Of a stretch of DNA of 64,000 bases, positions 45,894-63,402 are shown one piece after another. Origin of the DNA: Bacteroidetes bacterium GWF2_35_48 (GTDB lineage: Bacteria; Bacteroidota; Bacteroidia; Bacteroidales; GWF2-35-48); the NCBI GenBank assembly GCA_001769125.1, contig MEOG01000064.1, forward strand, positions 1 through 64,000. The letters are read 5' to 3'. The notes under the pieces are model-generated. The model saw only the letters and a list, made by a program, of their open reading frames with translations. It had not been told where the DNA came from and did not search any database. A program made the position numbers and the translations under genes. Numbering within the stretch: the stretch's first letter is position 1; every line of letters begins with the position of its first letter.

Positions 45894-46193
45894 ATGGAAG
45901 TTGTAACAATTCAATCCGAAGTTTTCCAGCAGCTTTTATCAAAGCTCGACAATCTGGAATCATATTTCAAGCATGTAGTAAAGCAACAACCTTTATCCGA
46001 GCAATGGCTCGATATTGAGGAAACATGCCAGTTGCTTAAAATCTCCAAACGCACCTTGCAGGGCTACCGTGATCAGGGCATTATTACTTATTCGCAGGTT
46101 GGCGGTAAAATCTACGTTAGTGCCTCTGCAATCGAAGAACATCTGCGAAACCACACACGCAAGGCTTTTAAGAAACCAAAAATTTCAATCTGA
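45894..46193 (+). CDS. Excisionase-like HTH protein (MerR/HTH_17 type)
   Basis: A 99-aa protein: an N-terminal helix (about 1-30) and a winged HTH of the excisionase type (WLDIEETCQLLKISKRTLQGYRDQGIITYSQVGGKIYVSASAIEEHL, about 38-85 by pattern), then a basic tail (RKAFKKPKISI). Such proteins are common in Bacteroidota mobile elements directly in front of the primase gene and may act as excisionase or regulator. The 20-bp palindrome upstream would suit self-control. Confidence 0.85.
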   Translation: MEVVTIQSEVFQQLLSKLDNLESYFKHVVKQQPLSEQWLDIEETCQLLKISKRTLQGYRDQGIITYSQVGGKIYVSASAIEEHLRNHTRKAFKKPKISI

Positions 46194-46235
46194 CCAGCTT
46201 GCTTTTTTGTTTTGCCATATCATTCTAATTATCTG

Positions 46236-46277
46236 CACCCCTCTGTTTTCTTGTTTCGCAAGTTTACAGTAGGGGTG
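46236..46277 (+). promoter_or_regulatory. Hairpin in the leader of the primase gene
   Basis: CACCCCT-CTGT pairs with ACAG-T-AGGGGTG around a loop of about 19 nt. It ends 18 nt before the primase ATG and could affect its translation. Confidence 0.45.
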
Positions 46278-46295
46278 TTTTAAAATCACAAGCCT

Positions 46296-48473
46296 ATGAA
46301 AGTTTCTGTTTTCAATAATTTCAACAAAGTTTCAGATAACCTCGAAATAACGGTTATTCTGGAACAACTTAAAAGCGATAAATATAAAAACCGCATTCTG
46401 CAACTTCGCACATTGCTTGTTGCCGAAAATGAAAGCGAATATAACAAACAGAAAAAATCTCTTCCTGCATTCACTCCATGCGGTTTGTTTGAAGGTGGTC
46501 GCAAAATGGAATTTCTCAAAGAATATTCCGGGCTTCTCATTCTTGATATTGATAAGCTGAGCAGCAGTCAGCTTTCAAATATCAAACAAACGGCTCAGGG
46601 AATCGCTTTTACTTATTGTGTATTTACAAGCCCATCCGGGAACGGCCTGAAAATTCTGGTTAAAATAAATTCCTCACAGGATCACCACAAGCTTGTTTTT
46701 AACCAGGTGAAAAAATATTATGAATCTGTACTCAATGTAAACATTGACCCATCAGGCAAGGACATAACCCGCTTGTGTTTTTTTTCATGGGACCCGAATA
46801 TATACATTAACAACAATGCGCAGGTATTCCGCACTACAGCAAAGCAGGTATCAGAACAAATCGAAGAAATCATTCAGCAAATTGAACAGCATCAGATTGA
46901 TATTACCAGCGAATATAAAGATTGGCTCAGTATCGGCTTTGCCCTCATTGATGCGCTGGGCGCAGGAGCACAGCAACCGTTCCACCGCATCAGTCGGTTT
47001 TATCACAAATACAATTCTGAAGAATGCAACAAACAATTCGACAAATGTTTAAATTCGAATAATTCCGGCACTACCGTAAAATCATTTTTCCATTTCGCAA
47101 AACAACACGGCATTTGTATGAATCCCAATACACAGTCTTTACAGCGTACAAACACTACCTTTACACCTGTCCGCGAAGCTGTCACCCTGAGCGAAGTCGA
47201 AGGGTCAATTCAGCTTCAACAGCCGCTTGATAACAGTAAAGACATGCCAGTGGCACGTCTCGAAAGTGTAAAAGAAAAAACAGAGCCAACCGACGCAATC
47301 GCTGGCAAACAAACCGATGAAAAGCCGAAATCAAAAAAGTCAGGCACAAACAAATTTCATTTAGTCCGTGATTACCTTTTAGAAAATTTCGATATCAGGT
47401 ATAACAACGTGTCAACAAATTTTGAATACAAGGAAAAAGACCAGCAATTTTATGAGCCAATGAATGAGAACGATATTTTTATAAAAATGCAGTTAGATGG
47501 TTTAAGTTTTTCCCTTTCAAATCTGGTTGCATTCCTTAAATCCTCAATGGTGCATAGATACAACCCTTTTATACAATATTTTGAATCCCTGCCGCTCTGG
47601 GATGGCAAAACTGATTTTATTCAGGAATTGGTTTCTTTTGTGAATTTAAAGCCTGAATTATGCGACAGGTTCGATAAACACTTTAAAAAATGGTTGGTTC
47701 GGGTTGTGAAATGCGCTTTGGTAGATTCTTATTTTAACAAACAGGCTTTTATTTTAGTGCATGACAAGCAAAATTCAGGTAAATCAACATTTTGCCGCTT
47801 TCTTTGCCCGCCCTCACTGAAAAATTATATTGCCGAAAACCTAAGTATTGACAAGGATTCCCGCATTTTACTTACAACAAACCTTTTAATCAACCTCGAC
47901 GAGCTTTCTACACTGTCAAAAGTCGAGATCAACTCTCTGAAATCCTTGTTTTCAAAAGACAAGATAAATGACCGTTTGCCATACGACAGAAAAAATTCAA
48001 TCATTCCACGCAGGGCCTCATTTATAGGCTCAACGAATCAGGCAGAGTTTTTAAACGATGAATCAGGCTCAGTCCGTTGGTTATGTTTTGAAATCCGCTC
48101 AATAGATTGGTCATACAAAGAAAAAGTGAATATTGATAATGTCTGGGCGCAGGCTTATACACTTTACAAATCCGGTTTTCATTGCGATTTAACACCCGAA
48201 GAAATAAAAGAAAACGAAGAATACAACAGGCAATTTAATATTACAACAACCGAATTTGAATTGATACATAAATACCTTTCTCCGGGAACCCGTGAAAATC
48301 ACGGTTGTTTTATGACTGCTACAGACATACTTTTGTATATAGCTGAACAAACAGGCGGTAAAGTAAAACTGAATAACATCAATGTAGGCCGTGCACTTAA
48401 AATGCTTTCATTTGCCAGAGACAAGAACTACCCCGATAAAAACTATGGCTATTTCGTTTTTAAGAAAATATAG
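46296..48473 (+). CDS. Mobile-element primase-helicase (BT4734-like, PriCT_2, VapE)
   Basis: A 725-aa replication protein. A BT4734-like primase domain spans about 40-180 (CGLFEGGRKMEFLKEYSGLLILDIDK; FTSPSGNGLKILVKI), a PriCT_2 domain about 205-275 (WLSIGFALIDALG), a linker about 276-345, and a VapE-type SF3-like ATPase about 420-650 with Walker A QNSGKSTF (G495, K496, S497) and Walker B LLINLDELS (D535, E536), plus IGSTNQAEFLNDESGSVRW. It would prime and unwind the element's DNA. The linker contains residues 297-306 encoded by a dispersed genomic repeat (TLSEVEGS). It is flanked by two motif arrays. Confidence 0.9.
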   Translation: MKVSVFNNFNKVSDNLEITVILEQLKSDKYKNRILQLRTLLVAENESEYNKQKKSLPAFTPCGLFEGGRKMEFLKEYSGLLILDIDKLSSSQLSNIKQTAQGIAFTYCVFTSPSGNGLKILVKINSSQDHHKLVFNQVKKYYESVLNVNIDPSGKDITRLCFFSWDPNIYINNNAQVFRTTAKQVSEQIEEIIQQIEQHQIDITSEYKDWLSIGFALIDALGAGAQQPFHRISRFYHKYNSEECNKQFDKCLNSNNSGTTVKSFFHFAKQHGICMNPNTQSLQRTNTTFTPVREAVTLSEVEGSIQLQQPLDNSKDMPVARLESVKEKTEPTDAIAGKQTDEKPKSKKSGTNKFHLVRDYLLENFDIRYNNVSTNFEYKEKDQQFYEPMNENDIFIKMQLDGLSFSLSNLVAFLKSSMVHRYNPFIQYFESLPLWDGKTDFIQELVSFVNLKPELCDRFDKHFKKWLVRVVKCALVDSYFNKQAFILVHDKQNSGKSTFCRFLCPPSLKNYIAENLSIDKDSRILLTTNLLINLDELSTLSKVEINSLKSLFSKDKINDRLPYDRKNSIIPRRASFIGSTNQAEFLNDESGSVRWLCFEIRSIDWSYKEKVNIDNVWAQAYTLYKSGFHCDLTPEEIKENEEYNRQFNITTTEFELIHKYLSPGTRENHGCFMTATDILLYIAEQTGGKVKLNNINVGRALKMLSFARDKNYPDKNYGYFVFKKI
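47185..47204. repeat. Dispersed GAGCGAAGTCGAAG-type repeat inside the primase gene
   Basis: CCCT and AGGG flank GAGCGAAGTCGA. Related words occur at 48519-48534 and in the 19869-19990 spacer. Here it is translated in frame as LSEVEG without breaking the protein. Confidence 0.6.
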
Positions 48474-48904: not shown

Positions 48905-48929
48905 TAGAGATTAAAAACAAGAACTTTTG

Positions 48930-50099
48930 ATGCAGAATTCAGTATATTTTGACTTTATAAAAGAATTAAAGGGTTCTATCCTTCATAGTCGCTACATGGC
49001 GGCAAGGTTAGTAAACCGTGAATTGCTTCTTTTATACTTTCACACTGGAAAACAATTATCAGAAAAAATCGAATCCGAAAAATGGGGCGCAAAGGTACTG
49101 GAAACAATATCAAATGACCTACAGAATGAATTATCTGGACTTCGGGGTTTCTCTGTTACCAGCTTAAAAAAAATGCGTCAATTCTACCAGACTTACGCCT
49201 TTCTGGAATATAGACCGTCAGCAACGGCCCAATTACCACAGAAAAATGAAATTGGACCGTTATCAACGGCCCAATTAAAATTGTCCGTTAAAAATCTTCA
49301 AAATGTAGTAAAACAAAGCAATTACCCTTTTGGTTCGCCAAATTCACAACAAATAGATTCTCTTGCCTCTGCTTCATTTATTGATACCTTTTTAAGCCTT
49401 CCATTTTCTCATCACATCCTGCTTCTTAACAAAGTACGTAATTGGGATGCATTAAGTTTTTACATGAATAAAGCAGTCGAAAACCAATGGACAGTTGATT
49501 TTCTCACACATCATATTGATGCGGATTCATTTCAGAAAGCAGGACAAATTCAGTCAAACTTTGAAAAAACATTACCTGCAAAATTAAATCCAAATGTATT
49601 ACAAGCATTTCGTGATGAATATTTACTCGATTTTCTGAATATACAGCCTATTGATGAAGAAGACGAACTGGTTCTCGAAAATGAAATTATTCTGAACATC
49701 AAAAAATTTATTATGTCCCTGGGCAGAGAGTTCACATATATGGGCAATCAATATCGCTTAATTGTGGACGAAAAAGAATACTTTGTTGATTTACTTTTCT
49801 ATCATAGGAGTTTACAAGCATTAGTGGCTTTTGAATTAAAAACAGGGGCTTTCAAACCGGAATATGCAGGGAAGCTAAATTTTTATCTGAGTGCTTTGGA
49901 CGAGTATATTAAACTGCCACACGAAAACCCATCTGTTGGTATTATCCTTTGTAAAGAGAAAAAGACCACCACTGTTGAATTTTCTTTTCGCTCAATTGAT
50001 AAACCTATGGGTGTGGCCACTTATAAACTTAGCAAAGAACTACCAGAGGTATATAAAAAATATTTACCCGATCCTGATGTTCTAAGAAAAATGATATAA
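48930..50099 (+). CDS. DUF1016/YhcG-family PDDEXK nuclease
   Basis: A 389-aa protein; I start it at ATG 48930, not the TTG 3 nt earlier. The N-terminal DUF1016_N domain (about 10-100; SRYMAARLVNRELLLLYFHTG, GFSVTSLKKMRQFYQTY) is followed by a variable linker (about 95-150) with a repeated TAQL segment, then the C-terminal nuclease domain (about 150-380; LPFSHHILLLNKV). Nuclease residues are Asp287 (YFVDLLFYH) and Glu302-x-Lys304 (AFELKTG). The family is common in defence islands and mobile elements, but its target is not established to my knowledge. It has its own promoter. Confidence 0.88.
   Translation: MQNSVYFDFIKELKGSILHSRYMAARLVNRELLLLYFHTGKQLSEKIESEKWGAKVLETISNDLQNELSGLRGFSVTSLKKMRQFYQTYAFLEYRPSATAQLPQKNEIGPLSTAQLKLSVKNLQNVVKQSNYPFGSPNSQQIDSLASASFIDTFLSLPFSHHILLLNKVRNWDALSFYMNKAVENQWTVDFLTHHIDADSFQKAGQIQSNFEKTLPAKLNPNVLQAFRDEYLLDFLNIQPIDEEDELVLENEIILNIKKFIMSLGREFTYMGNQYRLIVDEKEYFVDLLFYHRSLQALVAFELKTGAFKPEYAGKLNFYLSALDEYIKLPHENPSVGIILCKEKKTTTVEFSFRSIDKPMGVATYKLSKELPEVYKKYLPDPDVLRKMI
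49213..49277. repeat. In-frame dyad repeat in the DUF1016 linker
   Basis: Two 23-bp copies (49213-49235 and 49255-49277) differ at two positions and are 42 bp (14 codons) apart. The second lies in a dyad ATTGG.CCGTT-ATC-AACGG.CCAAT. They encode the repeated TAQL segments. Confidence 0.7.
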
Positions 50100-50131: not shown

Positions 50132-50938
50132 ATGATTCGTAATAATATAAAGTTTTCAAGCATTGATGGCACCCAGCTTGAAGGTGATTTTTATAATGCA
50201 GATAAAAAGGGAGAATTATCTGTTTTATTTGTGCATGGTATTACATCAGATAGGAAAGAAGACAACTTGTTTGTCGATATCGCAATGGAGCTTTTAAATT
50301 TGAATATTTCTTCATTTTCATTTGATTTGAGAGCTCATGGTAAAAGTCAAAGGCAACAGAATGAATTAACTTTATCTGGTTGTATAAATGATATTATTTC
50401 AGCAACTAATCTTCTATTAAAAGAAACAAATACAGAGAAATTAATAATTATTGCTGCAAGTTTCGGTGGTGGTATTAGTATTAATGCAAGTAGTTTCTTT
50501 TCAAATAAAATGAAAAGTCTAATTTTATTAAATCCACGACTTGACTATAAACCTTGGGCTATAGATCATGAATTCTGGGATAAAGACCAGCTTTCTGATA
50601 TTGGGAAAAATAAAATGAATACCGAAAAATATATTATAAGAAATGATTTTAAAATAGGTATGGCTTTATTTAATGAGCTACTTTGTTTTGAACCTGCATC
50701 AGTTTTAAAACAATTGAATATACCAGTTCTTTTTATTCATGGTGATCAAGACTCAATAGTTCCCATCAATATTTCAAGAGAACATTTTAATGATAATGGT
50801 AATGGAAAATTAATTGAAGTTAGCGGTGCAGATCATGGGTTTGTTTTACCAGATGATGAAAACGCAACAAATCCTCAAAATATAGAATACCGGAATTTTG
50901 TAATTAATTCTATTGTAAATTGGATTAAGAATGTTTAA
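50132..50938 (+). CDS. Alpha/beta hydrolase
   Basis: A 268-aa cytosolic alpha/beta hydrolase. The oxyanion HG is in LFVHGITSDRKE (about 33-43), the nucleophile elbow is AASFGGG with Ser110 (Ala in place of the first Gly of GxSxG), the acid is Asp207 (IHGDQDSIVP), and the base is His235 (GADHGF). It resembles serine aminopeptidase/acylesterase-like members and may remove an acyl group. It is the first gene of a five-gene operon and overlaps the acyltransferase gene by 8 nt, so the two may act on the same acyl modification. Confidence 0.88.
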   Translation: MIRNNIKFSSIDGTQLEGDFYNADKKGELSVLFVHGITSDRKEDNLFVDIAMELLNLNISSFSFDLRAHGKSQRQQNELTLSGCINDIISATNLLLKETNTEKLIIIAASFGGGISINASSFFSNKMKSLILLNPRLDYKPWAIDHEFWDKDQLSDIGKNKMNTEKYIIRNDFKIGMALFNELLCFEPASVLKQLNIPVLFIHGDQDSIVPINISREHFNDNGNGKLIEVSGADHGFVLPDDENATNPQNIEYRNFVINSIVNWIKNV

Positions 50939-51590
50939 CACAATCAGAAATATATTTTCACCATACTATTTATATAAGGGTTGTAATATTTCAAAAACAG
51001 CAAAAATATTCCCTTATTGTATAATAGGTCTGCCTCCGCATCCTGAAGATATGCAATATCTCAAAGAACCATTAATTACTAAAATTGGGAATAATGTTTA
51101 TTTAAGTCCCTTCTGTGTAATTTATAAAGGAGCTATTCTAAAAGATGATGTTTATTTAGATCCTTATGTCAGGGTTGGTTCAAGTTCAACTATTGGAGAG
51201 AAAACAAGATTGTTATATGGTGCAAGAATTCATGACAATGTAAGCATCGGGAGTAATTGTCAAATAGGTGGCAATTGCTCTGATGATGTAATAATAGGAA
51301 ATAATGTTACTCATTTTGGCAGAATTACGCATAAATATAATAATCCGAAAGCTGACTGGGCTACAACGGTTGAAAAATCTCCTGTTATTGAAAATAATGC
51401 TATAATTGGTGCAAATGCAATAATAATAGGTCATGTTACAATTGGTGCAAATTCGTACATTGGAGCAGGTGAAATCATTAGGAATACAATACCAGCAAAT
51501 CACATTTTTTATAAAAATAAATTATATAGTTCATCTGAGTGGAAGGGTAGCCTTTCAAAAAATAAATTTTTCAAGGATGAGAACATTTAA
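50931..51590 (+). CDS. Left-handed beta-helix (hexapeptide) acyltransferase
   Basis: A 219-aa transferase of the LpxA/DapH-like hexapeptide family. Repeats with I/V-G-x-N-x spacing run from about 40 to 190 (KIGNNVYLSPFCVIYKGAIL; IGSNCQIGGNCSDDVIIGNN; VTIGANSYIGAGEIIRNTI). Such enzymes transfer acetyl or other acyl groups to sugars or amino acids. The N-terminus (FSPYYLYKGCNISKTAKIFPYC) fits sugar-acetyltransferase-like members. It overlaps the gene before by 8 nt and the gene after by 14 nt. Acceptor unknown; the glycosyltransferase downstream suggests a sugar. Confidence 0.87.
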   Translation: MFNTIRNIFSPYYLYKGCNISKTAKIFPYCIIGLPPHPEDMQYLKEPLITKIGNNVYLSPFCVIYKGAILKDDVYLDPYVRVGSSSTIGEKTRLLYGARIHDNVSIGSNCQIGGNCSDDVIIGNNVTHFGRITHKYNNPKADWATTVEKSPVIENNAIIGANAIIIGHVTIGANSYIGAGEIIRNTIPANHIFYKNKLYSSSEWKGSLSKNKFFKDENI

Positions 51591-52701
51591 AGTTTTTTTT
51601 GTTTATGCTTTTACTTCAAAAGAGAATTATTATAGTCGAAGCGACATAATTTCTGTAATTGAAGAAGTTTGTGAGATTGCACAGAGTGATTCAAAAAATA
51701 AAAATATTAAAGTAGTACCGGATTTTTATTTTAATGAATTTGGTAACAACCTTCAAATTGAAATCGAATATAGAATAAAAAATACAGATTTGTGTATTAT
51801 AGATATTTCAGAGAACAATCCGAATGTTTTTTACGAATATGGCATTGCAAGAGGTGTTAATTGCCCAATAATTGTATTAAAAAGTAAAAAATCAAAAAAC
51901 GATTATTCAATTCCCTCCGATATTGTTGGAACTCATGTCCTGTTTTATGAAAACATAAAAGATATTATTGGCCGTTTATCTAATAGAATAAGTAACGTTA
52001 TTAGTGAAATCAAACATACAGAACAAAACTACTTAGACTTAGCCAGAAAAACATGGAATTTTGGGAGAGATATTTATCCAAGTCATATTTATATTATTGC
52101 AGCATCAAGCGAAACGCCATCAAAATTTAAAGAATTTAATTCACCCGATCATATATATTTAGATAATTTGTGTGATAAAGATTCTATTCTTGAAATTTCT
52201 GTTCTTCTTGGTAAACTATATCCTCAATCTGAAATAAAAATTTTGTCTATTGACAACCTTCCACCTTCCATAATAGAAGAAAATTTAGTTTTGATAGGCG
52301 GAATAGGAACACAAAATACACCTAATAATGAAATTGCTAAAAAAATAATAAAAACGTTAAGAATTGATATTTCCTATTTAGATGAAACAATGGTTTACAA
52401 TGGTGAAGAATTCCACTCTCAAAAAGGGAATGATGACTTTTTATCATTGGATCATGCTTTTTTTGGTCGTTTTGATAATCCATTAAATCCGAACAAAAGA
52501 GTCTTTTTTGCGCAAGGCATACATACATTTGGTGTATTAGGTGCTATAAGAGCATTTTCTTTACATCCTACTGCAATTAATAATCATAAATTGATTGACA
52601 ACATTGTTTCAAATAATGGCAATATAAGCGCAAAATTTCCAATTAATATTATTCAATGCCGTGTTATTGTCCCACCCTTAACAGAAGAATTTCTATATTA
52701 A
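51577..52701 (+). CDS. TIR/nucleoside-deoxyribosyltransferase-like protein with an unassigned C-terminal domain
   Basis: A 374-aa protein; ATG 51577 (MRTFKVFFVYAF) is chosen because the longer frame from 51433 lies inside the acyltransferase gene. Residues 1-145 look like the TIR / nucleoside 2-deoxyribosyltransferase-like fold: FFVYAFTSKE opening, then CIIDISENNPNVFYEYGIARG with Glu87 at the usual catalytic place, then CPIIVLK. Residues about 165-374 form a second domain that I cannot assign, marked by ENLVLIGGIGTQNTPNNEI (237-253), RFDNPLNPNKRVFFAQGIHTFGVLGAIRAF (298-327). NAD or nucleotide cleavage is a possible activity. The gene is embedded in an operon of sugar- and peptide-modifying enzymes, which is unusual. 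Confidence 0.72.
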   Translation: MRTFKVFFVYAFTSKENYYSRSDIISVIEEVCEIAQSDSKNKNIKVVPDFYFNEFGNNLQIEIEYRIKNTDLCIIDISENNPNVFYEYGIARGVNCPIIVLKSKKSKNDYSIPSDIVGTHVLFYENIKDIIGRLSNRISNVISEIKHTEQNYLDLARKTWNFGRDIYPSHIYIIAASSETPSKFKEFNSPDHIYLDNLCDKDSILEISVLLGKLYPQSEIKILSIDNLPPSIIEENLVLIGGIGTQNTPNNEIAKKIIKTLRIDISYLDETMVYNGEEFHSQKGNDDFLSLDHAFFGRFDNPLNPNKRVFFAQGIHTFGVLGAIRAFSLHPTAINNHKLIDNIVSNNGNISAKFPINIIQCRVIVPPLTEEFLY

Positions 52702-52710
52702 TTGAGTCCG

Positions 52711-53565
52711 ATGTTTGCAAGCATTATTACCTGCGTTTATAATCAAGATTTCAATATATTCCAAGAATGTTTTGATTCTATATGCAATATAAAATTTACT
52801 GATGATTTCGAGTGGATCATAGTGGACGATGGTTCTGATATCTGTTTTTTTAATGGTTATCTTGATATTATTAATAAATATAATAAACCATTAAATATTA
52901 CAATTAAAAGACTGGAAAATAATAGCGGGTTATCTATTGCCAGAAATGAAGCTATAAATCTTTCTAATGGAGAATGGGTCATTTCCTTAGACTCTGATGA
53001 TAAATTAGAACCTCATTTAATACAGGAGCTGAAAAATTTGAATAAGCACGTAAATATAGCTGCATTTGAAGTTAATTATTTTAATTCCAATTCATCGGAG
53101 TATCGTAAACTAAATAAATTTAAACAATGGTTTGAAGAATTTGGGCTTACTGATTTAGACCCGTTTCTTTGGTTTGATTTTTATTACCACGGAATAATTG
53201 CGAAGAAGAATATTATTGAAAAAATTGGATGCTACGATAATTTCTTAAAAGTCGGTGAAGATCAAGATATACTAATAAAGGTAGTGCATTCCATGAAAAA
53301 AGAGAATGTTGCATTTATTGAAAAACTTGGTTATCACTATAGAAATAATGAAAACGGTGTATGCAAAAAAAATTGGGATGAAGTTTTGCTGGGTTATACT
53401 TCGTCAATGTTAAAATCCATGAAAAGATTAAATCAATTATTCATTGAATGCCGGTTTGGCGGAACAATAACAATTGATGAATCAATTATTGATATTTACG
53501 AATATAAACATGCACAACACGGTTGGCTTAATTGGTATAATTACAAGGATATTAAAAAAATTTAG
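52711..53565 (+). CDS. Family 2 glycosyltransferase
   Basis: A 284-aa GT-A fold glycosyltransferase. Motifs: SIITCVYNQD at the start, WIIVDDGSD (about 35-43), GLSIARNEA (73-81) and the metal-binding DSDD (94-97). The later YHYRNNENG segment and a Glu-Asp pair (KVGEDQDILIKV) are also typical. I start at ATG 52711 because it lies 9 nt after the previous stop; a TTG at 52702 would add three residues. No membrane segment, so it probably acts in the cytosol on a carrier or protein. Only 3 nt separate it from the radical SAM gene. Confidence 0.92.
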   Translation: MFASIITCVYNQDFNIFQECFDSICNIKFTDDFEWIIVDDGSDICFFNGYLDIINKYNKPLNITIKRLENNSGLSIARNEAINLSNGEWVISLDSDDKLEPHLIQELKNLNKHVNIAAFEVNYFNSNSSEYRKLNKFKQWFEEFGLTDLDPFLWFDFYYHGIIAKKNIIEKIGCYDNFLKVGEDQDILIKVVHSMKKENVAFIEKLGYHYRNNENGVCKKNWDEVLLGYTSSMLKSMKRLNQLFIECRFGGTITIDESIIDIYEYKHAQHGWLNWYNYKDIKKI

Positions 53566-53568
53566 AAT

Positions 53569-54648
53569 ATGGAGTATGTGCTTTTCCTTACTTATAATTG
53601 TAATTTAAAATGTAAGTATTGTTTTGCAAATGAAATAGTAAATAATAAAAATTACGAGCTAGTCATAAGTGATAGTCAATTAAATTCTACGATAGAATAT
53701 ATTAGAAGGGATATTGATAGAAGAAAAGCGATTCAAAATTTTATTGTTTTTTATGGTGGGGAACCAACTCTTGTTCCCCACATTATCGAAGAAATAATCA
53801 ATAGAACAAATGACCTGAAAATAAAATATATTCTGTACACAAATGGTGTTTTAATAAACAAATTACCACTCACAATAATAAAATTTGTTAATACAGTATT
53901 AATATCCATTGATGGTGAAAAAGCAACTCAGGATTTTTTTAGAGGAATAGGTACTTTTGACCAGATTATTTTCAATGCTAAAATTCTTAAAGAGAATAAT
54001 AAAAACATAATTGCCAGATTGACTTATGATGAAGGTTCAGATATTTACAAAGCCGTTATTGTGTTAGAGAATAAGTTTGATGCTCTATATTGGCAAATTG
54101 TAAGTAAGTCAAAATTTAATGATTCAAATCAATTCTTGAAAAATTACTCTGAACAAATTCAAAATTTATTAACACACTGGATAAATAAGTTAGAACAAGG
54201 TATTGTTATAAATATTATACCCTTTCAGATAGTGTTAGAAGTAATAATAAAAAAAGAAAAGAATAACTTTTTCAAATGTGGTTGTGGTCATGATCTTCAA
54301 GCAATAGATATTTCTGGTAATGTTTATCTTTGTGATGAATATATTGGTAATAAGGACCGGATTATTGGAAATACAAATTCAGAGGATTACATTGCTTTAG
54401 ATAATAAAATTTCTATTAATATTTTTGGGGATTGTAGGACTTGTCAATATTTGCATATTTGTTCGGGCAGATGTCGGAAATGTTTAGAATATAACTCTAA
54501 AGAACAAATAAAGACCTATTGCGAAATGACAAAAATATTAATAGATGCTATTTATTACAGGTATAATGATATCGTTTCTGCTTGCAGTTCTTTTAATTTA
54601 GATAGAATATTTTATAAAGGCGAATATTTGACAGAATTAATTCCTTAA
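53569..54648 (+). CDS. Radical SAM/SPASM enzyme, possibly peptide-modifying
   Basis: A 359-aa enzyme. The first Fe-S cluster motif is CxxxCxxC at Cys11, Cys15, Cys18 (YNCNLKCKYCFANE), with GGEP at 63-66 and SIDG at about 113-116. The C-terminal SPASM-like part has Cys237, 239, 255, 289, 292, 298, 302, 305 and 318 (KCGCGHD; YLCDEY; CRTCQYLHICSGRCRKC), enough for two auxiliary clusters. It is reminiscent of the AF1577-type peptide-modifying family. No obvious Cys-rich precursor peptide is visible next to it. It is the last gene of the operon 50132-54648. Confidence 0.88.
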   Translation: MEYVLFLTYNCNLKCKYCFANEIVNNKNYELVISDSQLNSTIEYIRRDIDRRKAIQNFIVFYGGEPTLVPHIIEEIINRTNDLKIKYILYTNGVLINKLPLTIIKFVNTVLISIDGEKATQDFFRGIGTFDQIIFNAKILKENNKNIIARLTYDEGSDIYKAVIVLENKFDALYWQIVSKSKFNDSNQFLKNYSEQIQNLLTHWINKLEQGIVINIIPFQIVLEVIIKKEKNNFFKCGCGHDLQAIDISGNVYLCDEYIGNKDRIIGNTNSEDYIALDNKISINIFGDCRTCQYLHICSGRCRKCLEYNSKEQIKTYCEMTKILIDAIYYRYNDIVSACSSFNLDRIFYKGEYLTELIP

Positions 54649-54716: not shown

Positions 54717-55364
54717 ATGAATACAAACGCAGATACTTCTCTTGAATCTGAAGATGAATTTGAAGATGAAATTTTATTTAATGAACAACTTTATAAGGCG
54801 ATATCTCCAAAAATCAAACAATTTTTAGTAGAATATTATGGAGATAATTTTTATAACCTGAAACCCGAAACATATCTTGAAATTGAAACATTAATAGAAG
54901 ATGATATTCTTTTATTTGCTAGTGAAATACCTGATATTTTATACCGTAACAGAACTATTACTGATGAAGACAAATTTGATGAAGCCTTAGATAATTTTGT
55001 GCCTGATAATATACCGATTAATTGGCCTGTAATTGAAAATTGGTTTGATAGAGATTTTTCAAATGATGACGATGAAGATACCTTTTTAGAAGATAGTGAT
55101 CCGATTGACTTAACTGAAGATCAAAAAAAAGCAAAGGAAATAGTTGAACTAGCAAATGAAATGACCGATAACACACAGAGCTTTGCTCATTTTATGAAAT
55201 CCGGTTATGAAATTACAAATAAAAAAGTTCAGCTATTTTTAGAAAATATTGCATCATTTGAGTTGTCTATTCTTTCACCTGATGGTTTTATTGCTCTTCA
55301 AACACACTTGAATTTACTTGTATCAACACTGTTAGAAAATTTATATACAATAATGCCTGATTAA
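54717..55364 (+). CDS. Very acidic hypothetical protein, 215 aa
   Basis: Not recognised. About 50 of 215 residues are Asp or Glu against about 14 Lys/Arg, so the protein is strongly negative. Acidic runs lie at 10-18 (ESEDEFEDE) and 106-128 (NDDDEDTFLEDSD). No cysteine, no signal peptide; the C-terminal 90 residues are helical. It stands between the radical SAM operon (68 nt before) and the promoter of the subtilase. It could be a DNA-mimic or chaperone-like partner, or a substrate or regulator of the protease; none of this is shown by the sequence. Confidence 0.7.
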   Translation: MNTNADTSLESEDEFEDEILFNEQLYKAISPKIKQFLVEYYGDNFYNLKPETYLEIETLIEDDILLFASEIPDILYRNRTITDEDKFDEALDNFVPDNIPINWPVIENWFDRDFSNDDDEDTFLEDSDPIDLTEDQKKAKEIVELANEMTDNTQSFAHFMKSGYEITNKKVQLFLENIASFELSILSPDGFIALQTHLNLLVSTLLENLYTIMPD

Positions 55365-55420: not shown

Positions 55421-57883
55421 ATGCCAGCACAAGAAAAAAACAATTCCCATCTTCATTTTAATAATCCGCAAGAAGGTGTTGTTGAGTACAAACAGAAAAC
55501 TAGGGTTGTAACTAGAGATGATGATGGTTTGCCCAAGTACTATCAACACATGAAAGATACTTTCAGGAATTGTACTGCAAATTTTAATAGCGATAAAAAC
55601 ACCCGACATCAAAATAGAAACAATACTTTACGCTTACCACAACATATAGATTACATTCTGATTAATTTTTTTGGTCCTTTCGATATCGAAAAATTTACAA
55701 ATCGTTACAAACAGAACTTTGGCCTAGTCCCCGTAAAATTTGAATTATTCAATTCATTGGGGCTTTTTGCAATTGATAACGATAACCTTTTTAATAACTT
55801 TTTTCGGGAATTGCAGACTTTTCAAAGAACTAACGATCACACAGGGAATCTGCCCTATAATGTTGACATTCGATACATAAAAGATTTTCGACTATTATCA
55901 GACTCAAACATAATTTCCTACAGGCAGCTTTACGATTCTGCATTTTTAAACCTTGTTGATGTTACTGAATTATTTCATGACCGCATCCACCCAATAGAAG
56001 AAAGTTTAAAAACATATCTTCACCGAAACAATATAACATTCATTCATAATCAGGAGAACAAGACAATTCAGATATGGGGTGCTTCACAGGCTCTGATAAA
56101 TGAAATAATTGCAAATTTTGATATTATTCATTCTGTAAATTCTTCTCTGGCTGGTGTTGTTGCGCCGGGGTCATTTAATACACCAATAAGAAGCTTTGGT
56201 TTTACCTTGGTGCCGCCCTCTCCAGATGCCCCAGTTATTGGCATTTTAGATTCAGGCATAAGTTCAAATACACCTTTAAATGCAATAGTTAAAAATGCCA
56301 ATAATGAATACGACCTGACAGGCACTGGTTCTTTAATTGATAATCTTTTCAATGGTTGCGGTCATGGAACTGGTGTTGCTGGTTTTGCTGCGCTTGGCTC
56401 TCAGCTTATCACAAACCATACAGGTAACAAACAGGCAGATGCATGGCTGTTATCAATAAAAATTTTAGATACTAATTCTCCCCGTGTTTCTGATTTAGAA
56501 ATTATAAACCTTATAAGGAAAGCTCATGAGGAATATGGTGTAAGAATTTTTGTCCTTACTGTCACAGAAAATGACTCTAAGGGCGATAATGAACCTATAT
56601 CGGCATTTGCTTTTAATTTGGATAAGCTGGCTTATGAATTGGATATTCTTATAATAATTTCAGCAGGTAATATTTCACAGGATTATTTTATTGATCAAAA
56701 TTCTGGTACTGCAAGAATAGCATACCCTGATGATTTTATTCAGCAATGGTCAAATATTAAATCTCCATCTGAAAGCATGAATAACTTGGCAATTGGTTCA
56801 TGTGCCGGTAATTTTGAAAACGAAATAAACACGGGCATTGCAGTTGATAATGATTTTCCGGCATTATATTCAACAAAGTTTAATTACGATTTTGAATCTG
56901 ATATTTTATCAAGTAAGCAATCAAACAAATACTTAAACAAACCGGATATTTTATATTATGGCGGCGATTGGGATAATAGCCTTGATTGTAGTATTACAGG
57001 ATTAAAGCATCTTTCAGCCAAAACAGGTGTTTATTATGATAAAAACACAGGGACTAGTTTTTCTGCTGGTCTTATAGCCAATATTGCAGCAAAAATAATT
57101 TATCGTTATCCGTCTCTGAGCATGCAATCTGTTAAAGCATTATTAATAAGTTCCGCATTTGTGCCAAAATTCAATTCTTTCTATAACAATTTTTCAGAAA
57201 AATTTGCACAACGCATTATTGGCAATGGTATTCCGGTAATTAACGAATGTTTACATTCTACTGATAATTCAGTAACAATAATTATCGAAGATGAAATTAG
57301 CCCTGATAGAATAAAATCTTACCCACTTCATATTCCGGAATATCTTTTATCAAAAACAACAAAAAGTACAGTTCTCGATATTAAAGCAACTCTTTGCTAC
57401 AGCTTTGAACCCTTGCTGAATAATCAAATGGCCTATTGCCCCATCCATATTGGGTTTGGCATTTTAAAAAATATGAATTTAAACGAGTGGACTACAAATA
57501 CAGAAGGGAAACAAATACCTCATGGCTTAAATGGAAATAGCGCAGAAAATATCAAAATTAAAAATGGTCAGGGATGGTCAGAGGATTATTATTTTAAATC
57601 AAAACTCCTCAGTAACGTACAAAAAATGGAGCTGGTTTATAATATTGAAAATATCTCTGGTAATGATAACACTTTCAAATTAGCCATAAATTGTAAACGT
57701 CATAAATTAATGAATGAAGAACAGAAAAATCACTTTAACAGGTCTTATAAATTTAGCATTACCATGAATTTTCAGGAAAGACCTGTGAAAAATCTTCTTG
57801 AAGGTAATTTATATTACGAACTTTTTGCAGTAAATACGCTGGAAGCAATTACAGACTTGGAAGCAGAATTAAATGTTGAATAG
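55421..57883 (+). CDS. S8 subtilisin-like protease, IetS-like
   Basis: An 820-aa cytosolic subtilase (no signal peptide). The N-terminal part (about 70-240) has an IDYILINFFGPFDIEKF segment and FELFNSLGLFAIDN, as remembered for the protease of the IetAS pair. The S8 domain (about 270-600) has a complete triad: Asp277 (VIGILDSGI), His315 (NGCGHGTGVAG) and Ser546 (NTGTSFSAG), with the oxyanion Asn417 (ISAGN). About 610-820 is a beta-rich C-terminal domain. An AAA ATPase gene ends 3 nt downstream on the other strand. IetAS-type pairs have been reported as antiphage; here the relation is by motif and neighbourhood only. Confidence 0.88.
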   Translation: MPAQEKNNSHLHFNNPQEGVVEYKQKTRVVTRDDDGLPKYYQHMKDTFRNCTANFNSDKNTRHQNRNNTLRLPQHIDYILINFFGPFDIEKFTNRYKQNFGLVPVKFELFNSLGLFAIDNDNLFNNFFRELQTFQRTNDHTGNLPYNVDIRYIKDFRLLSDSNIISYRQLYDSAFLNLVDVTELFHDRIHPIEESLKTYLHRNNITFIHNQENKTIQIWGASQALINEIIANFDIIHSVNSSLAGVVAPGSFNTPIRSFGFTLVPPSPDAPVIGILDSGISSNTPLNAIVKNANNEYDLTGTGSLIDNLFNGCGHGTGVAGFAALGSQLITNHTGNKQADAWLLSIKILDTNSPRVSDLEIINLIRKAHEEYGVRIFVLTVTENDSKGDNEPISAFAFNLDKLAYELDILIIISAGNISQDYFIDQNSGTARIAYPDDFIQQWSNIKSPSESMNNLAIGSCAGNFENEINTGIAVDNDFPALYSTKFNYDFESDILSSKQSNKYLNKPDILYYGGDWDNSLDCSITGLKHLSAKTGVYYDKNTGTSFSAGLIANIAAKIIYRYPSLSMQSVKALLISSAFVPKFNSFYNNFSEKFAQRIIGNGIPVINECLHSTDNSVTIIIEDEISPDRIKSYPLHIPEYLLSKTTKSTVLDIKATLCYSFEPLLNNQMAYCPIHIGFGILKNMNLNEWTTNTEGKQIPHGLNGNSAENIKIKNGQGWSEDYYFKSKLLSNVQKMELVYNIENISGNDNTFKLAINCKRHKLMNEEQKNHFNRSYKFSITMNFQERPVKNLLEGNLYYELFAVNTLEAITDLEAELNVE

Positions 57884-57886
57884 TAA

Positions 57887-58915
57887 TTAGCTGCGTATTA
57901 AATTCTTTTTTTCTTCAGTAACAAGTTCCTGCCATATTCCTGTACTTATGGTCGCAGTTATTGGTCTGAGATTTTCAGCATAACTAAGCAGTGTTCTTTT
58001 TAACGCAGTGATTAAGGTCTTTTGAATACTAAAATAAGATAATCCGAGGGATGATTTTATAATTTTCTGAGAGTTTCGTGTATTATCGAATTTAAAATTT
58101 CCTTTTTTTAACGTCAGTGCAATTAATTCTTTTATTTGAGATTCATTAGGTAGTTCAAGCTTTATAATAGCATCAAATCTTCTTACTAATGCTTCATCAA
58201 TCATTTCTTTTTGGTTTGTTGCGGCTATCACTAAATTTTCCTGTGGCAAATAATCAAAAAGTTGAAGAATGGTATTAACAACTCTTTTCATTTCACCGTG
58301 ATCTTGGCTGTAATCCCTGATTTTTCCTAAAGAATCAAACTCATCAATAAAAATTATTGTGTTTTCAGTAGTAGCTTTTCTGAATAATTTTGCAAGGTTT
58401 TTACTGGTTTCTCCTAGCTTTGAAGATACAATTGCGCCCAGATTTACAACTACCATCATTTTTTCCAGTTCCCCTGCAAGAACATAAGCGGCTAAAGTTT
58501 TTCCGCAACCTGATGGCCCGTGTAGTAATATTTTATTTGAAATAGGTAAATCAAACTGTTTGAGAATATTTATTGACTTATGCTCTTTTACAAAAAATTC
58601 AAGATTTTCTCTTACATCTGTTGAGCAAACAAGATTTGAAAATTTATAATCAGAAGTAAGTTTCTCTATAATAAATTCATTAATTTCTCTGTCTTCCTCA
58701 CGCAAAATATGTTTATTTGAACCAACTTTTACAAGGCCGCTGTTTTGTTGTTGCCTGATTGATTCTTTTATGAGTGATTGTAATTGCAAAGCGAAATTAA
58801 TTTTTTTGGACTTTTTTGAATGATCAATTAGTTCACTTAAAGCAAATAGCAATCTTTCCTGGTCATTTTCCAGACCATATTTTGCTATATCTCGTATGAA
58901 ATCAAATTGTGTCAT
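57887..58915 (-). CDS. AAA+ ATPase, IetA-like
   Basis: A 342-aa AAA ATPase. An N-terminal helical part (1-110) is followed by Walker A HGPSGCGKT (G133-T140), Walker B IIFIDEFDSLG (187-197), sensor 1 Asn234 (IAATNQ) and an Arg-finger-like RRFD (245-248). There is no membrane segment or protease domain, unlike FtsH. It is tail-to-tail with the subtilase (3 nt between stops) and has its own promoter at 58931-58938. With the protease it could form an ATP-dependent protease pair as proposed for IetAS, but such pairs are normally co-directional. Confidence 0.88.
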   Translation of the reverse strand: MTQFDFIRDIAKYGLENDQERLLFALSELIDHSKKSKKINFALQLQSLIKESIRQQQNSGLVKVGSNKHILREEDREINEFIIEKLTSDYKFSNLVCSTDVRENLEFFVKEHKSINILKQFDLPISNKILLHGPSGCGKTLAAYVLAGELEKMMVVVNLGAIVSSKLGETSKNLAKLFRKATTENTIIFIDEFDSLGKIRDYSQDHGEMKRVVNTILQLFDYLPQENLVIAATNQKEMIDEALVRRFDAIIKLELPNESQIKELIALTLKKGNFKFDNTRNSQKIIKSSLGLSYFSIQKTLITALKRTLLSYAENLRPITATISTGIWQELVTEEKKNLIRS

Positions 58916-61151: not shown

Positions 61152-61796
61152 ATGGCAATTGTTCAAAATCCAGTAACAGGCAGAACCCGTAAAAAATTTG
61201 GTTCAGCCGTTTTTTCCAAACAATTTGGGAAAAACACCATGCGCACCAAACCCATTGAAGTGCGTAACCCTAAAACGCAACTCCAGAAAGAGCAGCGTAG
61301 TAAATTCTCAATTATGGTCGCCCTTGCAAGGCTTTTCATGGGTTTTATCCGTGTCAGCTTCAAACAGGCAGCCACTGGTATGTCACAGTTTAACGTGTTT
61401 GTCCGTTCCAACATCAGCACCGCAATAACGGGCGTATTTCCAAACTATGCTGTTGACTTTGCAAGCCTTATCATTTCAAAAGGCACACTAACCGGCGCAG
61501 ATACCGGAGCTGCTATAGCTGTAGCTGGTCATATAGTAGATATTACCTGGGTAGATAATTCCGGTAATGGTGATGCGCTTGCAACTGATAAAGTAATGGC
61601 GCTCATTATTAATAACACAAAAAAAGCAATTATTCAAGACATGGTGACTAAAACCCGTGCTGATGTCAGTCTTTCATTAACCGTCCCTGCAACCTGGGTA
61701 GGTAATCAGGTGCATATTTTTATGGCATTTAAAACGCCTGCAGGTGATAGAATTTCTGACAGCAGCTTTCTTGCATCGGTGGCAGTCATTGCTTAA
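61152..61796 (+). CDS. DUF6266 family protein
   Basis: A 214-aa protein with the DUF6266-like start as I remember the family: MAIVQNPVTGRTRKKFGSAVFSKQFGKNTMRTKP split by residues, then NPKTQLQKEQRSKFSIMVALARLF and a second, beta-rich half (VDITWVDNSGNGDALATDKVMALIIN). The family is frequent in Bacteroidota mobile or prophage-like DNA; its function is unknown. A terminator follows and a related, longer protein is encoded next. Confidence 0.78.
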   Translation: MAIVQNPVTGRTRKKFGSAVFSKQFGKNTMRTKPIEVRNPKTQLQKEQRSKFSIMVALARLFMGFIRVSFKQAATGMSQFNVFVRSNISTAITGVFPNYAVDFASLIISKGTLTGADTGAAIAVAGHIVDITWVDNSGNGDALATDKVMALIINNTKKAIIQDMVTKTRADVSLSLTVPATWVGNQVHIFMAFKTPAGDRISDSSFLASVAVIA

Positions 61797-61826
61797 AGCT
61801 TTCATTTGGTTGGTGGTTTCTTTCTG

Positions 61827-61864
61827 AAGGCAGTTGTCGGAAAAGTCCTTCAACTGCCTTTTTT
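61827..61864 (+). terminator. Intrinsic terminator after the first DUF6266 gene
   Basis: AAGGCAGTTG pairs perfectly with CAACTGCCTT across a 14-nt loop and is followed by TTTTT. Confidence 0.88.
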
Positions 61865-61929
61865 AGTAACCTATCAAAACATCATTCAAATTCTAAAATC
61901 GTAAATCGTAATTCTAAAATTTAAAATTT

Positions 61930-63402
61930 ATGGCACGTATTAATCAAGGTTTTCTTGGCAATGCATCTGGTAAACTTGGAAATGTTGTTTTTGCTAAATG
62001 GCGTGATTTGCAAACTGCACATCAATATCAGCCCGATATCCATGATGCTAATTCACCAGCGCAGAAAAAACAACGTTCCCGGATGGTTACACTTCTGCAA
62101 TTCTTAAAACCCCTGAATAAGAATTTTATTAAATTCTTTAATTCTTCTATTGCTAAAGGCTCTACGCCTTGGGCTGTGGCTATCAAACAAAATATGTCCG
62201 GTGTCCCTGAATCCGGTTGTTTTCCTCTGAATAATCTCAGGCTTGGTAAACCAAATCTTCCGTCTTTTGAAATTATTGAAGCAACTTACAACCCATTTAT
62301 TGACCTTACAACTGTCCGTTATGTTCCTAATCTTCCGGTATCTTCTCAAAATCCTTTTCCTTATTTATGTTGTGCGGTGTTGGGTCAATATAAAACAACG
62401 GATGGTTCTATAAAATTTGACATACGGCATTTACTTTCAGAAAATCCTGTTGGTATTTTTCTATGTTCATACTATTCAGGTGGTCATGAACATGCTTTTG
62501 AAAACATCTGGAGCCATGGCAGGATGTGGTTCATTTATTATGACACTTTTGATATTGAAGGACACTATGACCCGATTCCTAATCTTTCTGAGCCAAGCGA
62601 TTTCACACCTGTTTCAATAGTCGAGGGCTTTAATGTTGATATTCCTGATGACCTTGTTCCACTTGATGCGTTTTCATGGAAATATGAAAAGAAAGCTGAT
62701 AAATGGTATCTCATTTTAAGTATTGATATCAAGAAAACAAAAATCAAAAAACCTGCTGATTATACTATTATCTTTTGGGGTGTTGCCCTTCGTGATTCTA
62801 AACATGAACAGTCTGAGCCAATGGAATGGAATCTTAAAAATACAACCAAAGAAATTGAATTAGGTGATAAAGGTTTTGATGGCAGTATTCTTGGTTTGTA
62901 TTCGCTTTTCACAACTGAAGGAGAACAGGTCAGCCGTTTCAACCGTTTTTATATCAGCAAAGATACTGACGACAAAGAACACCCATATTTTGACCAGCTT
63001 TTTGATTGCTGTTATGCTTTTCCTACTTCTTTTATTCTTGATGGTAACCAGTGCGGTTTCTGTGGCTCAATTGATGAACTATTTAGTGATATAATTGAGC
63101 TTTGGGAACAAGGCTATTTAGGTAATGATAGCGACATTGAACCACGAAATGAAGTTGCTTTGAAAATCCCGACTGATGCAAACGGGACTATTACTGTAAC
63201 TGGCTTTATTAGTCAGGAATTAAATGATTATATTTTTGATCGGGATAAAGTGGCCTTACTGGAAGTTGTTGCAAAATCTGGGTTCTCATTCAGCAAATGG
63301 GATGGTACTGATGCAGCAGATGTAAAAGACCTGGGCACAGGTAAATTTGAATTGGTAATGTCAAAGGAACGCAGTATCAGTGCTGTTTTCATTGCCATTT
63401 AA
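61930..63402 (+). CDS. Long DUF6266-like protein with C-terminal InlB-type repeat
   Basis: A 490-aa protein. The first 80 residues match the upstream DUF6266 protein in pattern (MARINQGFLGNASGKLGNVVFAKW; SPAQKKQRSRMVTLLQFLKPL). About 110-400 is a beta-rich region with IWSHGRMWFIYYDTFD; the last 70 residues (ALLEVVAKSGFSFSKWDGT...ERSISAVF) look like a divergent InlB B-repeat, a domain of surface and phage-like fibres. No signal peptide is seen, so export by a non-Sec route or release by lysis would be needed for a surface role. Confidence 0.68.
   Translation: MARINQGFLGNASGKLGNVVFAKWRDLQTAHQYQPDIHDANSPAQKKQRSRMVTLLQFLKPLNKNFIKFFNSSIAKGSTPWAVAIKQNMSGVPESGCFPLNNLRLGKPNLPSFEIIEATYNPFIDLTTVRYVPNLPVSSQNPFPYLCCAVLGQYKTTDGSIKFDIRHLLSENPVGIFLCSYYSGGHEHAFENIWSHGRMWFIYYDTFDIEGHYDPIPNLSEPSDFTPVSIVEGFNVDIPDDLVPLDAFSWKYEKKADKWYLILSIDIKKTKIKKPADYTIIFWGVALRDSKHEQSEPMEWNLKNTTKEIELGDKGFDGSILGLYSLFTTEGEQVSRFNRFYISKDTDDKEHPYFDQLFDCCYAFPTSFILDGNQCGFCGSIDELFSDIIELWEQGYLGNDSDIEPRNEVALKIPTDANGTITVTGFISQELNDYIFDRDKVALLEVVAKSGFSFSKWDGTDAADVKDLGTGKFELVMSKERSISAVFIAI

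What the first reader, a model, noticed from the sequence alone, without database searches (positions are those of the whole stretch)
50132..54648. Five-gene operon joining a TIR-like protein to acyl-, glycosyl- and radical SAM enzymes
Sequence: five genes with overlaps of 8 and 14 nt and gaps of 9 and 3 nt, so tightly coupled: alpha/beta hydrolase, hexapeptide acyltransferase, TIR/deoxyribosyltransferase-like protein, GT2 glycosyltransferase, radical SAM/SPASM enzyme. Known: TIR-like domains in bacteria often cleave NAD or nucleotides in antiphage defence; radical SAM/SPASM enzymes often modify peptides. Inference: this may be an undescribed defence or small-molecule pathway, since it lies between a DUF1016 nuclease and a subtilase/AAA pair.
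Basis: partly seen in the sequence, partly recalled or inferred. Interest (0 to 1): 0.75.

Follow-up and report, generated by a model that had tools for sequence, protein, structure and literature searches.

The report
TIR-like protein in recurring biosynthetic cassette
Three of these five genes (an esterase-like enzyme, an acyl-transferring enzyme and a protein with a TIR-like nucleotide-cutting domain plus an unnamed second domain) recur side by side in unrelated Bacteroidota with changing partner enzymes, which suggests an undescribed cassette that makes a small molecule and may use it to control the TIR-like protein; its function is untested.

Summary
The five genes, overlaps and gaps are as described. 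The five-gene set was not found again, but its first three genes recur in the same order in two Bacteroidota genomes of other families: alpha/beta hydrolase, hexapeptide acyltransferase, and a protein with an unnamed C-terminal domain (CTD); identities 24-33%. Partner enzymes differ: GT2 plus radical SAM/SPASM here; an adenylation enzyme, carrier protein and IS-broken glycosyltransferase in G211; a related glycosyltransferase and an L-amino-acid-ligase remnant in G316. The third protein's N-terminus swaps: TIR/deoxyribosyltransferase-like with the catalytic-type Glu (window, G211) or a membrane helix (G316). More distant CTDs carry membrane helices beside a B12-radical SAM gene (G820) or lie divergent from a biosynthetic cluster (Streptomyces plasmid). 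I read it as a rare mobile cassette that makes a modified small molecule and pairs it with a CTD sensor whose output domain is exchangeable, as in Pycsar/CBASS effectors. The sensing step is inferred. Defence is suggested only here (low-GC block between DUF1016 and an IetAS-like pair); at the other two loci I recognised no defence genes in about 60 kb. No capsule or O-antigen assembly genes were recognised beside any copy.

The parts
50132..50938 (+). alpha/beta hydrolase (esterase-like), trio gene 1; Ser110, Asp207, His235 invariant in three loci
50931..51590 (+). left-handed beta-helix (hexapeptide) acyltransferase, trio gene 2; His134 invariant
51577..52701 (+). trio gene 3: TIR/deoxyribosyltransferase-like N-domain (residues 1-153, candidate catalytic Glu87) fused to the unnamed C-terminal domain (CTD)
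52036..52698 (+). CTD of gene 3 (residues 154-374), motifs NLVLIGG, NP.NP and HTFGVLGA; proposed sensor
52711..53565 (+). family 2 glycosyltransferase (locus-specific partner)
53569..54648 (+). radical SAM/SPASM enzyme (locus-specific partner)
48927..50099 (+). flank: DUF1016/YhcG PDDEXK nuclease (PADLOC PDC-S02), 32 nt upstream of the hydrolase
54717..55364 (+). flank: unknown acidic 215-aa protein; membership in the operon unclear
55421..57883 (+). flank: IetS-like subtilase
57887..58915 (-). flank: IetA-like AAA ATPase

Best explanation
A rare, horizontally mobile cassette in which enzymes make a modified small molecule and a linked two-domain protein responds to it. The esterase-like hydrolase, the acyltransferase, a glycosyltransferase and a locus-specific enzyme (radical SAM/SPASM here; adenylation enzyme plus carrier protein in G211; amino-acid ligase in G316) would build or trim an acylated or glycosylated metabolite. 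The CTD of the third protein would bind that molecule or its precursor and switch on the exchangeable N-terminal output: a TIR/DrHyd-like nucleotide or NAD glycohydrolase using Glu87 here and in G211, a membrane domain in G316 and G820, an HTH-like domain in Streptomyces. Shown: gene order, recurrence, domain swapping, conserved candidate catalytic residues, fold class of the TIR-like domain. Inferred: a single shared pathway, ligand binding by the CTD, enzyme activity, any role against phages.
For: Same three genes in the same order in G211 and G316; the hydrolase's best hit in each of those genomes is the cassette copy; acyltransferase subfamily at E<=1e-30 only in these three of 390 genomes. 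N-terminal swap: TIR-like (window, G211), one TM helix (G316), TM helices (G820), weak HTH-like (Streptomyces). CTD relatives lie beside small-molecule enzymes in all five contexts. TIR-like domain: VIA-align Z 13.5 to MilB, 13.3 to DNPH1, 11.4 to a plant TIR; Glu invariant in nine relatives. Low GC and placement in mobile cargo between DUF1016 and IetAS-like genes.
Against: Only three full cassettes found, so the domain-swap argument rests on few loci. No ligand pocket or CTD structure is available. G211 and G316 cassettes show no recognised defence neighbours in about 60 kb. The N-domain's closest structures are biosynthetic or housekeeping N-glycosidases rather than TIR NADases. The G316 ligase and the G211 glycosyltransferase genes are broken, so those copies may be inactive.
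Confidence: 0.4

Rival explanations
1. A specialised-metabolite cluster in which the TIR/NDT-like domain is a biosynthetic N-glycosidase, as MilB and BcmB are in mildiomycin and bacimethrin synthesis, releasing a base or ribose phosphate that is then acylated, glycosylated and modified by the radical SAM enzyme; the CTD is a further catalytic or scaffold domain and there is no immune role.
For: MilB is the top structural match (Z 13.5) and BcmB and NDT also rank high; the sequence profile finds DNPH1, NDT and CMP N-glycosidase; adenylation enzyme, carrier protein and amino-acid ligase are typical of natural-product synthesis; MilB acts in mildiomycin synthesis (PMC4081090).
Against: In G316 the N-domain is absent and replaced by a TM helix although hydrolase, acyltransferase and CTD remain, which is odd for an essential biosynthetic enzyme; that locus may be decayed.
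Confidence: 0.33
2. Surface-glycan decoration: GT2, acyltransferase and hydrolase add or remove acylated sugars on an envelope polymer, and the TIR-like protein is incidental.
For: GT2 and hexapeptide acyltransferases are common in envelope glycan loci; best GT2 matches include capsule and teichoic-type enzymes.
Against: I recognised no flippase, polymerase, export or nucleotide-sugar genes near any of the three copies; the trio always includes the CTD protein.
Confidence: 0.1
3. The trio is a unit, but GT2 and radical SAM are unrelated cargo that happens to be co-transcribed, so no common pathway of five genes exists.
For: GT2 and radical SAM were not found with the trio elsewhere; the G316 glycosyltransferase-like protein is unrelated in sequence to the window GT2; the region is mobile-element cargo.
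Against: Gaps of 9 and 3 nt and uniformly low GC in all five genes; the other two cassettes also carry a glycosyltransferase-like gene and an activating or ligating enzyme.
Confidence: 0.15

Closest known systems
Pycsar / CBASS effector logic (PycTIR and PycTM, TIR-STING, CAP12)
   Same: One conserved domain joined to exchangeable TIR-like or membrane outputs beside enzymes that could make a small molecule; weak CAP12/PycTIR match of the N-domain.
   Different: No cyclase or CD-NTase family among the proteins; the CTD matches no known ligand-binding family; the linked enzymes suggest a non-nucleotide or heavily modified molecule.
MilB / BcmB / DNPH1 / nucleoside deoxyribosyltransferase N-glycosidases
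   Same: Fold of residues 1-150 and the conserved catalytic-type Glu.
   Different: 10-23% identity; fused to the CTD; the deoxyribosyltransferase Pfam threshold is not reached by the window protein.
Swarozyc / DUF4062 TIR-like NADases (preprint PMC13174449)
   Same: Divergent TIR/NDT-like domain with auxiliary domain, conserved Glu, found in defence islands.
   Different: No DUF4062 match; different auxiliary domain; biosynthetic partner genes.
TIGR04084 (AF0577) and PapB radical SAM/SPASM families
   Same: Best family matches of the fifth gene (174 and 129 bits).
   Different: Both below their cut-offs (225 and 340 bits); no precursor peptide gene recognised in or next to the operon.

Membership tests
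TIR / DrHyd / NDT superfamily (N-domain of the third protein) | Rossmannoid alpha/beta fold of TIR and deoxyribosyltransferases | tested here: met
   VIA-align Z 10-13.5 over 106-135 residues to MilB, DNPH1, NDT and TIR structures; model fair for residues 1-150
TIR / DrHyd / NDT superfamily (N-domain of the third protein) | Conserved catalytic Glu | tested here: met
   Glu87 invariant in nine relatives and aligned with the YELG Glu of DNPH1
TIR NADase | Hydrolysis of NAD | not testable with these tools
   needs an enzyme assay
Pycsar / CBASS | Adjacent nucleotide cyclase or CD-NTase | tested here: not met
   No such family among the five proteins or the flanking ones scanned
Pycsar / CBASS | Ligand-sensing domain with swapped TIR or TM outputs | tested here: inconclusive
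   Swap seen, ligand binding untested
Viperin (pVip) | Score above the NCBIfam viperin cut-off | tested here: not met
   60 bits against 180; PADLOC match only over residues 5-122, the radical SAM core
TIGR04084 radical SAM/SPASM | Score above the curated cut-off | tested here: not met
   174 bits against 225
Capsule or O-antigen locus | Flippase, polymerase or several sugar-nucleotide genes nearby | tested here: not met
   None recognised around the three copies by reading ORFs and family scans
Defence-island association | Recurrent position next to known defence genes | tested here: inconclusive
   Met in the window; no recognised defence gene at G211 or G316 over about 60 kb, read by eye, not by a full PADLOC scan
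IetAS (flanking pair) | Score above the NCBIfam cut-offs for IteA and IteS | tested here: not met
   191/510 and 115/900 bits; PADLOC models match at E 8e-68 and 3e-45, so called IetAS-like only

The most novel reading that the evidence does not exclude
A new class of signal-gated immune system in which the signal is a specialised, acylated or glycosylated metabolite made by interchangeable enzymes rather than a cyclic nucleotide or ADP-ribose derivative, sensed by a previously unnamed domain that is fused to TIR-like, membrane or HTH outputs.
Probability: 0.17. Interest if true: 0.88.

Novelty: new variant of a known kind. Interest (0 to 1): 0.55.

Why it matters
If the CTD is a ligand sensor for a metabolite made by its neighbours, bacterial TIR-type effectors would be controlled by a kind of messenger not yet described, and the domain would be a handle for finding more such systems. 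If the TIR-like domain is instead biosynthetic, the cassette is a compact new route to a nucleotide-derived natural product. Either way the trio gives a small, testable unit.

Tried and rejected
Five-gene set elsewhere: not found; P0001 gave no match in plasmids or phages, and no relative of P0001, the CTD or the radical SAM protein was confirmed in viral contigs. Radical SAM as anchor: only generic 23-29% matches in plasmids. Genus and family: the one relative held lacks the radical SAM gene and the CTD. CTD structure: single-sequence model unusable (pLDDT 34); in the full-length model much of the CTD is below 50. Two-domain Foldseek hits (kainate receptors, periplasmic binding proteins; rmsd 15-22 A) rejected as artefacts of that poor model. 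The G078 'CTD' hit (L016) rejected: it overlaps an unrelated ORF. G297 hit rejected: seven stops inside. N-domain-only hits belong to a widespread family in other contexts and were used only for the domain profile. Repeats of 14-15 nt or more bracketing the island: none. Paper searches gave no description of this gene set.

Full report
Observation. The five genes exist with the coordinates and spacing given. Pfam and NCBIfam confirm hydrolase, hexapeptide acyltransferase, GT2 and radical SAM. The third protein has no Pfam family at E up to 0.5 as a whole. It has two parts: residues 1-153, a TIR/deoxyribosyltransferase-like domain, and residues 154-374, here called the CTD.

Setting. The operon lies in a cargo region between a T9SS-type PorP/SprF-like gene (43031; my reading) and ordinary chromosomal genes such as trmD and pyrG (67206 onward; my reading). 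Around it are an HTH_17 gene and a BT4734/PriCT-2/VapE-type primase-helicase, a DUF1016/YhcG nuclease (PADLOC candidate PDC-S02), and an IetS/IetA-like pair. Operon GC is 28.3%, third lowest of 119 windows of this size. This fits horizontal acquisition.

Recurrence. In 395 genomes of the class, a full-length relative of the third protein occurs once besides the window's own (G211, 27% identity, E 5e-42) and a CTD-only relative once more (G316). At both places the preceding genes are the same hydrolase and acyltransferase in the same order; identities to the window proteins are 24-33%. The hydrolase's best hit in G211 (E 2e-33) and in G316 (E 4e-25) is the cassette copy; the next hit in G316 is E 8e-6 and G211 has no other below 1e-3. 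The acyltransferase subfamily reaches E<=1e-30 only in these three of 390 genomes; since the profile was built from these three, this shows absence elsewhere rather than independent discovery. A CTD profile found no further close copy in 395 phylum genomes, 247 order genomes or about 150 relatives each of G316 and G211, apart from the distant G820 protein. The cassette is therefore rare and patchy.

Variable partners. G211 has an amino-acid-adenylation enzyme (TIGR01733 256 bits, below its cut-off of 317; DltA-like) and a small carrier protein directly after the CTD gene, and on the other strand a glycosyltransferase-like gene broken by an IS3-type element (IS type is my reading). G316 has a related glycosyltransferase-like gene (33% over 123 residues; weak TAGT, E 0.015) directly upstream of the hydrolase, and the remnant of an L-amino-acid-ligase-type ATP-grasp gene downstream. 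That glycosyltransferase-like protein has a relative in only one of 257 genomes, at the G211 cassette. The window's GT2 is unrelated to it in sequence. Each cassette thus combines the trio with a glycosyltransferase-type gene and an activating or modifying enzyme.

The CTD. Besides the three cassettes, the CTD profile matches a membrane protein in G820 (E 6e-5), followed by a B12-radical SAM gene, and the G316 protein finds a 354-aa protein on a Streptomyces conjugative plasmid (E 4e-5, 84% coverage), divergent from a cluster of AdoMet synthetase, F420-ligase-like, Gfo/Idh/MocA, sugar isomerase-like and shikimate-dehydrogenase-like genes. Both score 20-22 bits; the best of 4000 shuffles scored 8.6. 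N-termini are TIR-like (window, G211), one TM helix (G316), TM helices (G820) and a weak sigma-70 r4/HTH-like stretch (Streptomyces, E 0.05). One member weakly matches S_layer_C (E 0.02). I could not obtain a trustworthy CTD structure.

The TIR-like domain. The model is fair for residues 1-150. VIA-align ranks MilB (Z 13.5, 131 residues, 2.9 A) and DNPH1 (Z 13.3, 121 residues, 2.4 A) first, then plant TIR (11.4), NDT (11.1) and SPARTA TIR (11.0). A nine-sequence profile finds DNPH1, NDT, CMP N-glycosidase and, weakly, CAP12. Glu87 is invariant and aligns with the YELG Glu of DNPH1; the equivalent Glu is catalytic in MilB (PMC4081090). TIR, DrHyd and SLOG domains have been unified as one class whose members act as signal makers, effectors or sensors (PMC9503650). 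A relative, DUF4062, has been reported as an NADase in a phage-defence system (preprint PMC13174449). Fold alone does not decide between NAD and nucleotide substrates.

Interpretation. One conserved domain with interchangeable TIR-like and membrane outputs beside small-molecule enzymes is the pattern of Pycsar and CBASS effectors (own knowledge), so I favour sensor plus effector plus metabolite synthesis (0.40). The main rival is a biosynthetic role of the N-domain as in mildiomycin synthesis (0.33). Loss of the N-domain in G316 while the rest of the trio remains argues for a swappable output. Defence is an inference from the position in this window; at G211 and G316 I recognised no defence genes within the roughly 60 kb read at each, though without a full PADLOC scan of those flanks.

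Verdict.

Noticed in passing
window 55421-58915: An IetS-like subtilase and an IetA-like AAA ATPase lie tail to tail (convergent, 3 nt apart) rather than in one direction; both are below the NCBIfam cut-offs but match PADLOC models strongly.
   Followed up: partly
window 54717-55364: Acidic 215-aa protein between the operon and the IetS-like gene, with no family above chance and no plasmid relative at E 0.01.
   Followed up: partly
window 45894-48473: HTH_17 gene followed by a BT4734-N/PriCT-2/VapE primase-helicase, probably part of the mobile element that carries the cargo block.
   Followed up: partly
window 61152-63402: Two neighbouring proteins related to DUF6266 (E 2e-52 and 9e-4), the second with a Flg_new_2-like C-terminus.
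   Followed up: no
L022 7143-9700: In G211 a glycosyltransferase-like gene next to the cassette is interrupted by a transposase gene (IS3-type by eye).
   Followed up: partly
L031 3826-12705: Streptomyces sp. NBC_01601 conjugative plasmid: a CTD protein divergent from a cluster with AdoMet synthetase, F420-ligase-like, Gfo/Idh/MocA and shikimate-dehydrogenase-like genes; possibly an undescribed small-molecule cluster.
   Followed up: partly
L003 9644-13335: Spirosoma validum: a TIR/NDT-like protein next to a gene ending in a TIR-type domain and a further TIR-TPR gene; looks like a separate conflict locus (my reading).
   Followed up: no
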